A stretch of DNA of 64,000 nucleotides. It comes from Pseudobacteriovorax antillogorgiicola (GTDB taxonomy: Bacteria; Bdellovibrionota_B; Oligoflexia; Oligoflexales; RGVZ01). Shown in pieces: positions 5,013 through 61,722 of the stretch. A model generated the notes under the pieces. It saw nothing but the letters and a program-made list of their open reading frames with translations, did no database searches and had not been told where the DNA came from. The position numbers and the translations under genes are program-made. The stretch is taken from NCBI GenBank assembly GCA_945898195.1, contig CAMDHM010000002.1:96874-160873 (forward strand). The letters run 5' to 3'. The stretch's first letter is position 1, and each line of letters starts with the position of its first letter.

Positions 5013-5045
5013 CACCTGCAGAGACTGACGAGCGAGGACTGAGAT

Positions 5046-56469: not shown

Positions 56470-57633
56470 ATGATGCGGAAAAAAAATTCCATTTTTACGT
56501 TCGCCCGTTGGGTTCTTGCTTCTAGCCTAATTTTTGGTGCCTACATTTTCTGTACGCACTTGATTGTGACGGCCCATAGCTTGGTCGACCTTAAGCTGGC
56601 GGGGAGCCTTAATGCCAAATCCCTGGTCACTAATTTTCGTGAAACAGTCGAAGGCAAGACGTTGCTCAGGCGTGCTCGTATCTATGCGGACTTGAGCCAA
56701 AAAACCCATCTCTTGGACGGCATGGTTGTCGACCGTGATTCAGCGGGAGGTTTCATCAATCAATGTGATTCATTGTTGTTTTCATCTCTCCGCTATGTGG
56801 CCTTGGCTAAACTTGGATTTATGGATCTTGCCCGTCCAGCCTGGGCAGCCATCAAGCAAAGTCGGACCCCCGTCGGTGGCTGGATTCGCCATCCTCGCTG
56901 TAGCGATGCGCCCCTTTCCAGAGATATGACCTTGGGACTTCTGGTGGCACTTTCGCAAAATCCGCCTGATGCCAAGCAGGTGCTTGCCCTAACCCGCAAC
57001 GACTTGAAGCGGTTTGATGGCTATATTTCGAACGGTCCATTTTACATCAGTTTTTTTAGTCCTGGATTTCGTGCCGCGTTTGACGAAATTGCTTTGGTGC
57101 AGGGTGAGCCGTCTTCCGGGTTGGCGTGGAGTTTCTGGACCACTGAATTTGATGCATGGACGGCAAACGGTGACTACCGGTCCCATCTGGTTGGGCTTAC
57201 GGTTTGGCTGGAATACGAAATTGAACGCATGGCTAAGTGGGAATACCGATCGGGAGCCACCATCGATCCTGTGGGCCTAATCATCGATCCGTTTATGGAT
57301 GTCCACCTTCGCGATTTGCGTTTAACCTGGTCGGCGCAATCGTTGCTTCGTACCGATCCAGACAATCTTTTTTTTCGGTGGTTGGCGCTCAACTCCCTTG
57401 GCGCATTAACCCCGGAGCGTCGCTTGGTTTTAGCGAAGCAGCTGCTTTCAATGCGAGCCTTTCCTGAACAGCGTCTGCCTTCTAATTGTGACCGGCGTGC
57501 TGATTATGTTTGGCAGCGTCCTTCTGAGCAAACCCGCGAGCGTAGCGAATCCTGCTCCGAAACCTTTTCCGGAACAGATTTTTTGTGGTTGAGTGCCTTG
57601 TTGCTAGATAATGGTGTAACATTACCAAAATAA
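56470..57633 (+). CDS. hypothetical membrane-anchored protein (387 aa); 3' end apparently altered by the downstream insertion
   Basis: N-terminal TM; in-frame SALLL codons lie within direct repeat copy 1. Confidence 0.7.
   Translation: MMRKKNSIFTFARWVLASSLIFGAYIFCTHLIVTAHSLVDLKLAGSLNAKSLVTNFRETVEGKTLLRRARIYADLSQKTHLLDGMVVDRDSAGGFINQCDSLLFSSLRYVALAKLGFMDLARPAWAAIKQSRTPVGGWIRHPRCSDAPLSRDMTLGLLVALSQNPPDAKQVLALTRNDLKRFDGYISNGPFYISFFSPGFRAAFDEIALVQGEPSSGLAWSFWTTEFDAWTANGDYRSHLVGLTVWLEYEIERMAKWEYRSGATIDPVGLIIDPFMDVHLRDLRLTWSAQSLLRTDPDNLFFRWLALNSLGALTPERRLVLAKQLLSMRAFPEQRLPSNCDRRADYVWQRPSEQTRERSESCSETFSGTDFLWLSALLLDNGVTLPK
57591..57608 (+). repeat. direct repeat copy 1 (GAGTGCCTTGTTGCTAGA)
   Basis: 18/18 identical to 59059-59076. 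Confidence 0.95.
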
Positions 57634-57644
57634 CCTTGTATAAT
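57616..57644 (+). promoter_or_regulatory. sigma70-like promoter for the ATPase cassette
   Basis: GTAACA (4/6) - 17 nt - TATAAT (6/6). Confidence 0.5.
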
Positions 57645-57682
57645 TGGAATAGGATTTCAATTTTTCGTAAAGTGAACCCCCT

Positions 57683-59014
57683 ATGTCGCTTAACAAGCTG
57701 TATTTAAAGAGAAATATTGACGACACCTTATGGGCCTGGGCACAGGCTCCTTCGCGTAAACCGTTGATTGTGCGTGGGGCGCGTCAGGTGGGGAAAACCG
57801 CCGCCATCAAACACTTGGGTGCGGCCGCATTTCAAAACACGTTAGCAATCAACTTTGATCGTCAGCCTCTTTTCAAGAAAGTATTTGAGTCTGATCTTGA
57901 TCCTCGACGCATCGTTTCTCAACTCGAAGCATTGATGGAAATGAAACTACGGCCTGGCAAGACGTTACTTTTTTTCGATGAAATCCAAGAATGCGAGAAT
58001 GCGATAAAAGCTCTGCGCTATTTTCACGAAGAGATGCCCGATGTGCACGTGGTGGCAGCGGGTAGCTTGCTGGAATTTGTTTGGGAGAAGTTATCTGTGC
58101 CGGTTGGCAGAGTATCCTATGCCTATCTGTTCCCCTTAACTTTCGACGAATTTTTAGCCGCATCGGGGCAGTCCAAACTTGCCGATCATCGTCCTAGATG
58201 GTCCGCCAGTGCCCCTACGACGGCATTGCTGGGTGAGGCAATGGCCCATTCCTTGTGGGCTTCTCTTAGAGACTATTTCATTGTCGGGGGAATGCCAGAA
58301 GCTGTTCTATCTTTTGTCGAACGACGCTCATACCTCGACGTCGGAACGATTCAAGACGATCTTTTACAAACCTACCGGGATGATTTTCATAAGTATGCAA
58401 AGGGCAATAAACAACTGGATAACCTCAGTGCCGTATTTTCGCGGGTCTTTGGCTTGGTCGGGAGACAACTCAAATATAGTTCATTGGGCGACGGCGATGA
58501 TACCAAACGTACAAAGGCGTCATTAGAACTTCTGGAGAGAGCGGGAATAGTGCACCGCGTTCACTGTACCTCAGCTAGGGGACTACCTTTGTCTGCAGGG
58601 ACAAAAGATTCTCAGTTTAAATGTATATTTCTGGACATTGGACTGGGACAGCGGTGCAGTGGAATGAAACCAGCAGATTTTATAAAGGCTGAAAATATAG
58701 CAACCTTTCACCAGGGGCTAATCGCCGAACAATTCGTTGGACAAGAGCTATTGGCTGAGGCAGATCCACGCAGCCACGAGCCTCTATATTATTGGGCGCG
58801 CCAAGAAAAAAGCTCCACGGCCGAGATAGATTATTTGGTGGTGCGTGACGGTGCGATCCTACCAGTAGAAATAAAAAGCGGAACATCCGGAGCGTTAAAA
58901 AGTCTGCATTTATATTTAAAAGATCGAGGCGGCGTAGGGATTTGCATGCAGCAAATAAACAACTGCCGGCTGTTAGACCAAGTGTATTTTATTCCGCTTT
59001 TTGCAAAACTATAG
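57683..59014 (+). CDS. AAA_14/DUF4143 family ATPase with PD-(D/E)XK-like C-terminal region
   Basis: Walker A VRGARQVGKTAAIKHL; Walker B LLFFDEIQ; sensor VVAAGSLLEF; C-terminal AEIDYLVVRDGAILPVEIKSG. Confidence 0.9.
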   Translation: MSLNKLYLKRNIDDTLWAWAQAPSRKPLIVRGARQVGKTAAIKHLGAAAFQNTLAINFDRQPLFKKVFESDLDPRRIVSQLEALMEMKLRPGKTLLFFDEIQECENAIKALRYFHEEMPDVHVVAAGSLLEFVWEKLSVPVGRVSYAYLFPLTFDEFLAASGQSKLADHRPRWSASAPTTALLGEAMAHSLWASLRDYFIVGGMPEAVLSFVERRSYLDVGTIQDDLLQTYRDDFHKYAKGNKQLDNLSAVFSRVFGLVGRQLKYSSLGDGDDTKRTKASLELLERAGIVHRVHCTSARGLPLSAGTKDSQFKCIFLDIGLGQRCSGMKPADFIKAENIATFHQGLIAEQFVGQELLAEADPRSHEPLYYWARQEKSSTAEIDYLVVRDGAILPVEIKSGTSGALKSLHLYLKDRGGVGICMQQINNCRLLDQVYFIPLFAKL

Positions 59015-59058
59015 CAGAGATATAGAGACGTCTCGGGTCGCTCACCCATTTCGAATTG

Positions 59059-59076
59059 GAGTGCCTTGTTGCTAGA
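59059..59076 (+). repeat. direct repeat copy 2 (GAGTGCCTTGTTGCTAGA)
   Basis: 18/18 identical to 57591-57608. Confidence 0.95.
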
Positions 59077-59097
59077 AAATCATTAAGGCCATAACCG

Positions 59098-61722
59098 TCA
59101 CAACTCTGCTTGCAGAAGGTTGCGCGCCTTTGTTCGAAGGGCCATCCTGGAGGTCGCCATGGTGATAAAGATCGTTAGGGCGACAATAAGGAGGGCCGGG
59201 ATAACGGCAGCCTTGGCGGCAAAAACCCATGCGCCGTCAAACAAGAAAACAGACAGAACCCAGGCAATGCCAAAGCTGATGGCAAGGCCAGTGGCTGCCG
59301 CAAAAAAAGCGACGATTGCCGCCTCTCCAAGAACGCGAACGTAGACTTCGCGAAAGGATGCCCCAAGAACTTTGAGGATCGCCGTTTCGTAAGAGCGTGC
59401 TCGGGATTGTTGTAGGGTAATAGCTGTCAGGACGCCCATTCCGGCCACCAGGCAAAGCATTGCCATGGCGGTGATGGCTAGGGCCACCTGTTCTGAAATG
59501 GACAGGATCCGCGCGACGGAGGCCTTCACATCCACGATGGATATATTTGAGAAAGATTGGGCGAGCTCGCGCTGAAGCTTTTGTGTCGTATCAAAATCTG
59601 TTTCTGTGACTGTGCCCAAGTAGGTCCTGGGGGCATCGTCAATGACCCCTTTTTGAAATTGAACAAAAAAGTTGGGCTGAAAACTCGCCCAACGGACGCG
59701 ACGCAAGTTGACCACCCTACCCTTGACGGGGACGCCTTGAACGTTAAATTCAAGGACATCGTCGAGCCTTATACCGGTGCGTTCCGCGAAACGTTTTTCA
59801 AGAGAAATTTCCGGCAGGTCTTGTTTTGTTCGATCAAATGTTACCGTTTGAAACTCTCTGCCAGCGGCCAAAGCCTCGCTGCCAGTGAGGCGACCGCGGA
59901 CTGAAAGATTATAAGTCCGGTTTTTGAACTGCTCTTCGCTTTGTCTCTCCCGCGTGCCAGGAATATTGTCGAAAGTTTCTCCGATCCCCTTGTCGTTGAT
60001 GCGGTCTAGTCGCGCACGTATGAGGGGCGAAAATGATCCTGATGAAAGATTTCTTGATTCAAGAAAATTTCGCAGCGGAGCTTCCTGCTCCGGCTGAATG
60101 TCGAACAGAAAAAGTCCAGGCAAGGCCGTCTTTTCTGACGAGGTCAATTCGGAAGTCAAAATGGCCTGTATTTGAGGAACGGCACTGATCAAGGCCGCAC
60201 AAAGCCCCAAGGTAACAAAAGAGACTATTAGATTTTGGCTGGAACGCCTTGTATGACGCAAAGCCATTAACAACGGCCAAGATCTCCAGCGGGTTTGCTG
60301 CTTGATCATCCGAGATACCGGGGCAAGTGCACGGAGCAAGATGGTTCCCGATGCCGCTAGAATCAAGATTGAAATGCCAGTGATCACTAAAAAAAGAATG
60401 CCAGCCTTTGGGCTTCGTGCCTGCCATGAGGCCAATCCAAAGATAATTGCAATGGATGGGGCCGCGGCTAAAAGCCAGCGCGAGTTTTTAATTTTCGATG
60501 GGTCTTCGTGTTCACGGAAAAGGGTCGCTGCGCTCATGCCGTCAAGGTGCATGAAAACCGGCAGGCCAGCGATCGGAGTACCCAGGGTTCCCATGATCAA
60601 AGCCATGATCACGGAATCTTTTTGAATGGAGACTTTGATGCCTGTTCCCAAAAAAGGCGCGAGAATTTCTCGAATGGCGGGCAATAGCATTGCAGCAATG
60701 GCGACGGCACATATGGCCCCACCAAACCCAAGCAGGATCATTTGCCATCCGATGATCCATCTGGCAGACGAGGGCCTCGCCCCGATGGACTGCAGGATGG
60801 CGAGATCGCGAATTTTACTGCGAACGTGAGCAAGAATTAAAAAATTTCCGCCGATCCCCGATAGGATGATGGCCACGAGAGCTATGATGCCAAGATAATC
60901 CCCGAGAAATTTTAAGATGCGTCCAAGCTCATCTGTGGCAGAGGTGTGGCTTCTGATACGCAGGTCGCTACGGGTTTTAGCGAAGGCTTTAAATTTTGCC
61001 TCAAGTGCTTCAGCATCTGACGGTGCCTGAGCTTCAGAAAATTGAGCGGGCAAAGCGTATTGGCGCGTACGGGTTATCCTGCTGCCTAACTGGATTAAAC
61101 CAGTTTGATGCGCCCACTTTCGGCCGATGTAAATCCTTGGGGCAATCGAAAAACTTGCCGACGAAGTGGACGGATCGCTGGCGATAGTTCCCCGTAGGCG
61201 GAAAACTTGATCGCCGATCTTCACGGACTGTCCTGGTTTTAAGTCCAATTGAAAATAAAGCTCTGGTGCCGCCAAGGCGAGCGGCTCAACTTCCATTTGG
61301 CGGAATATCGGGTCCGTGGAGGGTTTGCCGTCTTCGCCCGTGAAGGCGACCTCCCCGTAAAAGGGAAAGGTTGGATCAACGGCGCGAATTTCCATCAGTC
61401 TCGCCGGTGGCGCGCCATGGGAGCTTTCAGTAACGGCTGCGACCATGCTGACCCAACCCGATTCTTCAGCAATGCGGGTTCCACGGGGGACCAGTGCGTC
61501 AAAGGCGGTGATCTCGTCGAAGGTGATTGGACGAAAGGCAGAAACGGCTATGTCGGCGCCCAAGATTTCCCGTGATTTTCCCGACAGGCTTTGGTCGATA
61601 GAGGACTTCAGGGCGGTGACCGTGATGAAGCCAGTCAAGCCAAGGGCAATGTTTAAAATAAAGAACAGAGAAAATTTCGGCGTGTTGATGATCTCGCGCC
61701 AGGCCAGGCGCCTCCAAATCAT
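59098..61722 (-). CDS. ABC transporter permease, FtsX/YbbP-like
   Basis: 874 aa; FtsX-type TM blocks; neighbours YbbA-like and TesA-like. Confidence 0.9.
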   Translation of the reverse strand: MIWRRLAWREIINTPKFSLFFILNIALGLTGFITVTALKSSIDQSLSGKSREILGADIAVSAFRPITFDEITAFDALVPRGTRIAEESGWVSMVAAVTESSHGAPPARLMEIRAVDPTFPFYGEVAFTGEDGKPSTDPIFRQMEVEPLALAAPELYFQLDLKPGQSVKIGDQVFRLRGTIASDPSTSSASFSIAPRIYIGRKWAHQTGLIQLGSRITRTRQYALPAQFSEAQAPSDAEALEAKFKAFAKTRSDLRIRSHTSATDELGRILKFLGDYLGIIALVAIILSGIGGNFLILAHVRSKIRDLAILQSIGARPSSARWIIGWQMILLGFGGAICAVAIAAMLLPAIREILAPFLGTGIKVSIQKDSVIMALIMGTLGTPIAGLPVFMHLDGMSAATLFREHEDPSKIKNSRWLLAAAPSIAIIFGLASWQARSPKAGILFLVITGISILILAASGTILLRALAPVSRMIKQQTRWRSWPLLMALRHTRRSSQNLIVSFVTLGLCAALISAVPQIQAILTSELTSSEKTALPGLFLFDIQPEQEAPLRNFLESRNLSSGSFSPLIRARLDRINDKGIGETFDNIPGTRERQSEEQFKNRTYNLSVRGRLTGSEALAAGREFQTVTFDRTKQDLPEISLEKRFAERTGIRLDDVLEFNVQGVPVKGRVVNLRRVRWASFQPNFFVQFQKGVIDDAPRTYLGTVTETDFDTTQKLQRELAQSFSNISIVDVKASVARILSISEQVALAITAMAMLCLVAGMGVLTAITLQQSRARSYETAILKVLGASFREVYVRVLGEAAIVAFFAAATGLAISFGIAWVLSVFLFDGAWVFAAKAAVIPALLIVALTIFITMATSRMALRTKARNLLQAEL

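What the first reader, a model, noticed from the sequence alone, without database searches (positions are those of the whole stretch)
57591..59076. Single-gene AAA_14/DUF4143 ATPase cassette inserted at the 3' end of another gene, bounded by perfect 18-bp direct repeats
Seen: GAGTGCCTTGTTGCTAGA occurs at 57591-57608 and 59059-59076 (next 4 nt TAAT/AAAT, so 21/22). The 1,468-bp unit contains one complete ORF and no recognisable transposase, integrase or recombinase. Copy 1 is the in-frame 3' end of the 387-aa host ORF (...LWLSALLL|DNGVTLPK*). Reading copy 2 in that same frame gives SALLL|ENH*, so collapsing the repeats restores a slightly shorter intact host gene. That geometry (insertion in a gene 3' end, duplication of the end, host frame preserved) resembles att-site integration or a long target-site duplication. 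Established: the AAA_14+DUF4143 family pairs a STAND/ORC-like ATPase with a PD-(D/E)XK-like domain (here EIDYLV...PVEIKSG) and is of poorly known function. Inference: the gene may be a minimal mobile or cargo unit, possibly encoding its own nuclease or mobilised in trans.
Basis: partly seen in the sequence, partly recalled or inferred. Interest (0 to 1): 0.8.

Follow-up and report, generated by a model that had tools for sequence, protein, structure and literature searches.

The report
Candidate defence gene inserted with duplication
A single candidate anti-phage defence gene has been inserted cleanly into the 3' end of another bacterial gene, leaving an 18-22 bp copy of the target on each side; relatives still have the empty site, and other genes of this family (and some Fic genes) show the same pattern, which suggests that solitary defence genes can move one at a time without an obvious recombinase.

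Summary
GAGTGCCTTGTTGCTAGA lies at 57591-57608 and 59059-59076 (21/22 if extended) and bounds a 1,450-bp segment with one intact gene: AAA_14+DUF4143, a strong match to PADLOC's single-gene defence candidate PDC-S01. Two congeneric Oligoflexales genomes keep the empty site (host gene ends ...LLEND*), collinear for about 1.2 kb across the collapsed repeat, so this is a real insertion with target duplication.

It is not unique. Of 194 AAA_14 genes, 28 (18 after hand trimming) have tight flanking direct repeats, against 6 of 376 control ORFs. Lengths run from 15 to over 300 bp with no common core, often at gene 3' ends. Two further empty sites were found. Close homologues at different loci share only the gene plus about 50-220 bp upstream and 0-60 bp downstream.

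In several cases the repeat copies differ mainly at third codon positions, as if one came from a donor orthologue. I favour single-crossover integration of a small donor DNA carrying the gene plus a host-gene 3' end, resembling the 'insertion with long target duplication' reported for restriction-modification genes. Fic genes show it too, so the ATPase probably does not drive it. An integrase or transposase acting in trans is not excluded.

The parts
56470..57633 (+). Host gene, 387 aa, no Pfam or NCBIfam family; orthologues in 27 of 56 related genomes. Its native end was replaced by an element-supplied tail (DNGVTLPK*)
57591..57608 (+). Direct repeat copy 1 (18 bp exact; 21/22 to 57612), in-frame part of the host gene 3' end
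57609..57633 (+). Element-supplied host-gene tail after the exact repeat (TAATGGTGTAACATTACCAAAATAA; with the last bases of copy 1 reads ...DNGVTLPK*)
   Evidence: sequence; congeners G001/G002 end LLEND* instead
57609..59058 (.). Inserted unit, 1,450 bp, G+C 46.7% against 51.4% in the flanks; absent from the orthologous site in G001 and G002
57616..57644 (+). Promoter-like site inside the unit (GTAACA-17-TATAAT, 10 of 12); not more than shuffles give, so only suggestive
57683..59014 (+). AAA_14 + DUF4143 gene, 443 aa, PADLOC PDC-S01; Walker A GARQVGK, Walker B-like LLFFDEIQ and the PD-(D/E)XK-type motif AEIDYLV...PVEIKSG conserved
59059..59076 (+). Direct repeat copy 2 (18 bp exact; 21/22 to 59080)
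59059..59086 (+). Orphaned native end of the host gene (SALLLENH*)
59098..61722 (-). Convergent neighbour, FtsX-type 874-aa ORF; right flank shared with the empty sites in G001/G002
   Evidence: FtsX-type is my reading of the sequence, not a family search

Best explanation
A one-gene DNA segment carrying a PDC-S01-type gene (AAA_14 ATPase fused to DUF4143) entered an Oligoflexales chromosome at the 3' end of the 387-aa gene by a single crossover, duplicating 18-22 bp of the target and leaving the host gene with a new, in-frame tail. Shown: the insertion, its precision, the empty site in relatives, the single-gene content, and recurrence in other members of the family. Inferred: the incoming DNA was a small (probably circular) molecule that already carried a fragment of the 3' end of an orthologous host gene, so that short homology at that end sufficed for a Campbell-type crossover by the cell's own recombination; repeat length then reflects how much homology the molecule carried. 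Why the family spreads this way is also inferred: the gene is a selectable or selfish defence-type gene that is kept when it lands harmlessly at a gene end.
For: Empty sites: window locus in G001/G002; L111 in G002 against the intact site in G001 at 92-94% identity; L244 in G027 against G023 at 90-94%. Enrichment of flanking repeats (score at least 15): 28/194 AAA_14 genes against 6/376 other ORFs, Fisher 3e-9; conservative count 18/194, p 3e-5. Lengths 15 to over 300 bp, no common core. At least ten pairs of AAA_14 genes 79-99% identical at different loci share only the gene plus about 50-220 bp upstream and 0-60 bp downstream. Donor-like ends: L177 copies differ at 4 positions, all synonymous; the Fic case L363 differs only synonymously over PEVVGRMFGL*; over the coding-end AAA_14 repeats 12 of 18 differences are at third positions, p 0.004; in L111 homology continues at 20/30 beyond the exact repeat on the element side, shuffle p 0.001; L098 carries a 59-bp 3'-end fragment of the gene that stands whole beside the homologous unit L097.
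Against: No circle, junction or transfer was observed. 15-20 bp of identity is short for RecA-dependent recombination. In the window itself the element-side sequence shows no significant extra homology to the host end, so the donor-orthologue part rests on other loci. About 85% of AAA_14 genes have no detectable repeat. The third-position counts are small and were collected after the pattern was seen.
Confidence: 0.5

Rival explanations
1. Site-specific integration in trans: the unit is a satellite whose ends (attL/attR) are recognised by a tyrosine recombinase encoded elsewhere in the cell; the gene 3' end is the attB site and the unit carries a surrogate 3' end, as many integrative elements do.
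For: Gene 3' ends as targets, restored host frame, synonymous differences between copies and partial homology beyond the core are the classical geometry of such elements (my own knowledge). Three repeats (L211, L217, Fic L363) end exactly at the stop codon.
Against: No integrase in any unit; no shared core between the repeats; repeat lengths from 15 to over 300 bp; different host genes each time; the same pattern around unrelated Fic genes. Recombinases elsewhere in the genome were not surveyed.
Confidence: 0.25
2. Transposition in trans with an unusually long target-site duplication made by a staggered cut; no homology with the target is needed.
For: Clean empty sites and 15-22 bp repeats at the three verified loci look like target-site duplications.
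Against: Duplication length is far too variable for a known transposase; no transposase in the unit; no matching inverted ends seen by eye in the window unit; differences between copies biased to third codon positions and, in L111, homology running past the repeat.
Confidence: 0.13
3. Remnant of a larger integrative element or prophage whose other genes were deleted, leaving the defence gene between the old attachment sites.
For: Single-gene remnants between attachment-like repeats would look like this; the family also occurs on plasmids and in phage records.
Against: The AAA_14 gene is the only substantial gene between the repeats at most of the repeat-bearing loci examined, and close homologues at different loci share the same compact unit; repeated independent trimming to the same unit is unlikely.
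Confidence: 0.07
4. The AAA_14/DUF4143 protein mobilises its own gene by cutting the target.
For: ATPase plus conserved PD-(D/E)XK-type residues; strong association with the repeats.
Against: Fic genes of the same order show the same repeats; the intact target sequence remains on both sides of the insert, unlike homing; no activity is known.
Confidence: 0.05

Closest known systems
Insertion with long target duplication of restriction-modification genes (Nobusato et al. 2000, Gene 259:99; described in PMC3031569, PMC1643837, PMC4978471)
   Same: One or a few accessory, defence-type genes inserted without a transposase, flanked by long and variable direct repeats of a target that is single in a related strain.
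   Different: Here the gene is a solitary AAA_14/DUF4143 ATPase, not an R-M system; the window repeat is short (18-22 bp); targets are often gene 3' ends and the element-side copy can look like a diverged orthologous end. The 2000 paper itself was not held; I rely on later papers that describe it.
PADLOC PDC-S01 (COG1373-type AAA_14 + DUF4143 ATPases)
   Same: The window protein and its relatives match the PDC-S01 models over their full length. [quoted passage not shown]
   Different: None in the protein. What is added is a physical mode of insertion; in the papers found here I saw no description of one for this family.
Tyrosine-recombinase integrative elements inserted at gene 3' ends
   Same: Target at a gene 3' end, duplicated end, surrogate tail that keeps the host frame.
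   Different: No integrase, no shared core, only one gene, very variable repeat length.

Membership tests
PDC-S01 / AAA_14 + DUF4143 family | AAA_14 domain (PF13173) and DUF4143 domain (PF13635) in one protein | tested here: met
   88.1 and 90.7 bits, cut-offs 27 and 28.1
PDC-S01 / AAA_14 + DUF4143 family | Match to the PADLOC PDC-S01 models | tested here: met
   PDLC04788 E 2.7e-130, PDLC04786 E 6.3e-124
PDC-S01 / AAA_14 + DUF4143 family | Conserved Walker motifs and PD-(D/E)XK-type residues | tested here: met
   Invariant G32 A33 R34 Q35 G37 K38, D99 E100, E381, E396, K398 in 14 homologues; D383 nearly invariant
PDC-S01 / AAA_14 + DUF4143 family | Anti-phage activity | not testable with these tools
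   Candidate status only; [quoted passage not shown]
Insertion with long target duplication | Accessory gene bounded by direct repeats of the target; target single in relatives | tested here: met
   Three loci with empty sites
Insertion with long target duplication | Duplications long and variable in length | tested here: met
   15 to over 300 bp across the family; 18-22 bp in the window, at the short end
Insertion with long target duplication | Inserted genes are restriction-modification genes (the class in which it was described) | tested here: not met
   AAA_14/DUF4143 gene, no R-M domain. I therefore say it works like this, not that it is one of those elements
Tyrosine-recombinase integrative element | Integrase gene in the element | tested here: not met
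   Only one substantial ORF in the unit, AAA_14/DUF4143
Tyrosine-recombinase integrative element | Common attachment core | tested here: not met
   Repeats of different units share no core by inspection
Tyrosine-recombinase integrative element | Insertion at a gene 3' end with the gene end duplicated | tested here: met
   Window and L111; Fic L363
DDE-transposon or IS | Transposase and fixed-length target-site duplication | tested here: not met
   No transposase ORF; lengths vary 15 to over 300 bp
Integron cassette | attC site and integron integrase | not tested
   Repeats match host-gene DNA; no attC search was run

The most novel reading that the evidence does not exclude
Solitary defence genes (PDC-S01, Fic and perhaps others) form a widespread class of recombinase-free one-gene mobile units that travel as small DNA molecules carrying a fragment of the 3' end of a host gene and re-enter the orthologous gene end in new species by short-homology crossover.
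Probability: 0.3. Interest if true: 0.8.

Novelty: new variant of a known kind. Interest (0 to 1): 0.6.

Why it matters
PDC-S01 is described as the fourth most common defence across prokaryotes (PMC12988326), spreads between phyla and domains, and in the literature searched here had no described means of movement. Verified empty and occupied sites at strain-like distance turn the open question of how solitary defence genes travel into something that can be assayed, and give a boundary rule (gene plus about 50-220 bp upstream, repeats of the target) for recognising recent acquisitions.

Tried and rejected
Self-mobilisation by the ATPase: set aside because Fic genes share the pattern. tRNA or tmRNA att site: none within 50-64 kb. 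Conserved ends of the window unit: its intergenic pieces match nothing else in hand except at chance level. The genus repeat inside L111: not in the window. Plasmid empty sites: Vibrio and Acinetobacter plasmids showed no tight repeats and the near searches gave no clean empty site; the Glaesserella plasmid with a 75-bp repeat had no relative with an empty site. E. coli genomes: no DNA match. Prevotella L202 (100-bp repeat): 150 genomes gave homologous units but no empty flank. Sites L229 and L231: flanks fell on separate contigs or gave no clean join. L097 site: the orthologous region in relatives is too rearranged to call empty. Some repeat-bearing loci are AAA_14 arrays or simple repeats (L187, L168, L101, L130/L143, L099); they were dropped by hand, after the results were seen, from the conservative count of 18.

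Full report
What is there. The 18-bp repeat GAGTGCCTTGTTGCTAGA occurs at 57591-57608 and 59059-59076 and nowhere else in the window, even with three mismatches; 0.04 matches are expected by chance. Between the copies lie 1,450 bp with one substantial ORF, 57683-59014, 443 aa. It carries AAA_14 and DUF4143 and matches the PADLOC models of PDC-S01 over its length. The Walker motifs and the AEIDYLV...PVEIKSG residues are conserved in 14 homologues. An AlphaFold2 model (mean pLDDT 87) gives Orc1/Cdc6 and RuvB-type AAA+ ATPases among its best PDB matches, with low overall TM-scores of about 0.3, so the fold search supports only the ATPase half. The unit is poorer in G+C than its flanks (46.7% against 51.4%).

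It is an insertion. The host gene (56470-57633, no known family) has orthologues in 27 of 56 related genomes. In congeners G001 and G002 it ends ...MLLEND* and the DNA runs on into the FtsX-type neighbour without the ATPase; the collapsed window sequence aligns with theirs for about 1,230 bp at 77%. Of the 25 orthologue loci scanned, none except the window's own has a detected AAA_14 gene downstream. The genome is an Oligoflexales MAG: its congener G003 has a contig of the same length as a record titled Oligoflexales bacterium CH-Jul18-22.

It recurs. I scanned flanks of AAA_14 genes from this genome, 43 genomes of the order and 80 loci from other phyla. With a repeat score of at least 15 (match +1, mismatch -2; windows -600..+50 and -20..+500), 28 of 194 AAA_14 genes qualify against 6 of 376 other ORFs from the same loci (Fisher 3e-9); within Oligoflexales 12 of 110 against 2 of 202 (p 1e-4). 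The count entered in my notebook (27) was one short. Removing by hand arrays and simple repeats leaves 18 of 194 (p 3e-5), and 7 of 110 against 2 of 202 within the order (p 0.01). The trimming was done after seeing the results, so these two figures are rough. Two short-repeat cases besides the window were tested and each has an empty site: L111 (G002, 20-bp repeat at the 3' end of a 236-aa gene) against G001, and L244 (G027, 15-bp repeat just after a stop codon) against G023. Other tested loci gave no clean answer.

The unit is one gene. At least ten pairs of AAA_14 genes 79-99% identical at different loci share the gene, about 50-220 bp upstream and 0-60 bp downstream, and then diverge. L097 (G003) and L098 (G002) share 1,453 bp at 93%, while L098 also carries, 75 bp further up, a 59-bp piece matching the 3' end of the 500-aa gene that stands whole beside L097.

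What the repeats look like. Their lengths run from 15 to over 300 bp and I see no common core. Several overlap a gene 3' end; three end exactly at a stop codon (L211, L217, Fic L363). Neighbouring genes more often face the AAA_14 gene with their 3' end: 97 of 151 upstream, 94 of 154 downstream. The expected share is not exactly one half, because operons favour co-directional neighbours, so the downstream figure is the more telling. Where the repeat is coding, differences between copies favour third positions: 12 of 18 for AAA_14 loci (p 0.004), including 4 of 4 synonymous in L177, and only synonymous changes over PEVVGRMFGL* in the Fic case. In L111 the element side continues to resemble the host end for 30 nt (20/30; shuffle p 0.001); L265 and L205 also show extra homology, while the window, L244 and L083 do not. 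Together this suggests that in some units one copy came from an orthologous gene end of another species.

Mechanism. I favour a single crossover between a small incoming molecule, carrying the gene and a host-gene 3' end, and the resident gene end. Shown: insertion, duplication, single-gene content, recurrence. Inferred: a circular molecule, a donor orthologue in the window case, and use of the cell's own recombination. A recombinase or transposase acting in trans would leave similar traces and is not excluded. The ATPase itself is unlikely to be the driver, because 2 of 25 Fic genes of the same order have the same tight repeats.

Relation to known work. Papers describe R-M systems inserting with long and variable target duplications in the absence of a known transposase (PMC3031569; PMC1643837; PMC4978471). 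The original 2000 paper and the 2010 survey were not held. PMC12988326 reports PDC-S01 as the fourth most common defence across prokaryotes, with transfers between domains; full-text searches for DUF4143, COG1373 and PDC-S01 gave 1, 7 and 3 papers, none with a title or passage on its mode of insertion among those I opened. The open library misses most subscription papers, so novelty of the link is likely but not proven.

Limits. The genomes are draft MAGs, so contig ends hide some sites. The statistics were developed on the same data that suggested the pattern. Relatives are one genome per species, so strain-level polymorphism was not seen.

Noticed in passing
L373 and L363 (G037 and G020, Fic genes): Two Fic genes of the order have tight flanking repeats (66 bp perfect; 24 bp ending at the stop codon of an upstream gene, copies differing only synonymously).
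   Followed up: partly
L111:4282-4320; L292-L296: A roughly 30-40 bp repeat (CTTCGGTAACACTTATTGTGGCGCTACTCG) lies inside the L111 unit and at several places in G000 and G003; nature unknown.
   Followed up: no
L083:3602-3618 and 5023-5039 (G000:C13): A second AAA_14 gene of this genome, of another PDC-S01 subfamily, is bounded by a perfect 17-bp repeat, next to transposase-like fragments; no empty site was sought.
   Followed up: partly
L231 and L283 (G032, G029): Different AAA_14 genes sit beside the 3' end of the same neighbouring gene (92% identical) in two congeners, in opposite orientations; possible hotspot.
   Followed up: no
L309 (Glaesserella parasuis plasmid NZ_CP071488): A PDC-S01-type gene beside a type III R-M system, bounded by a 75-bp imperfect direct repeat.
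   Followed up: partly
G000: 16 AAA_14 genes above the cut-off in 2.44 Mb, a high number for a small genome.
   Followed up: no
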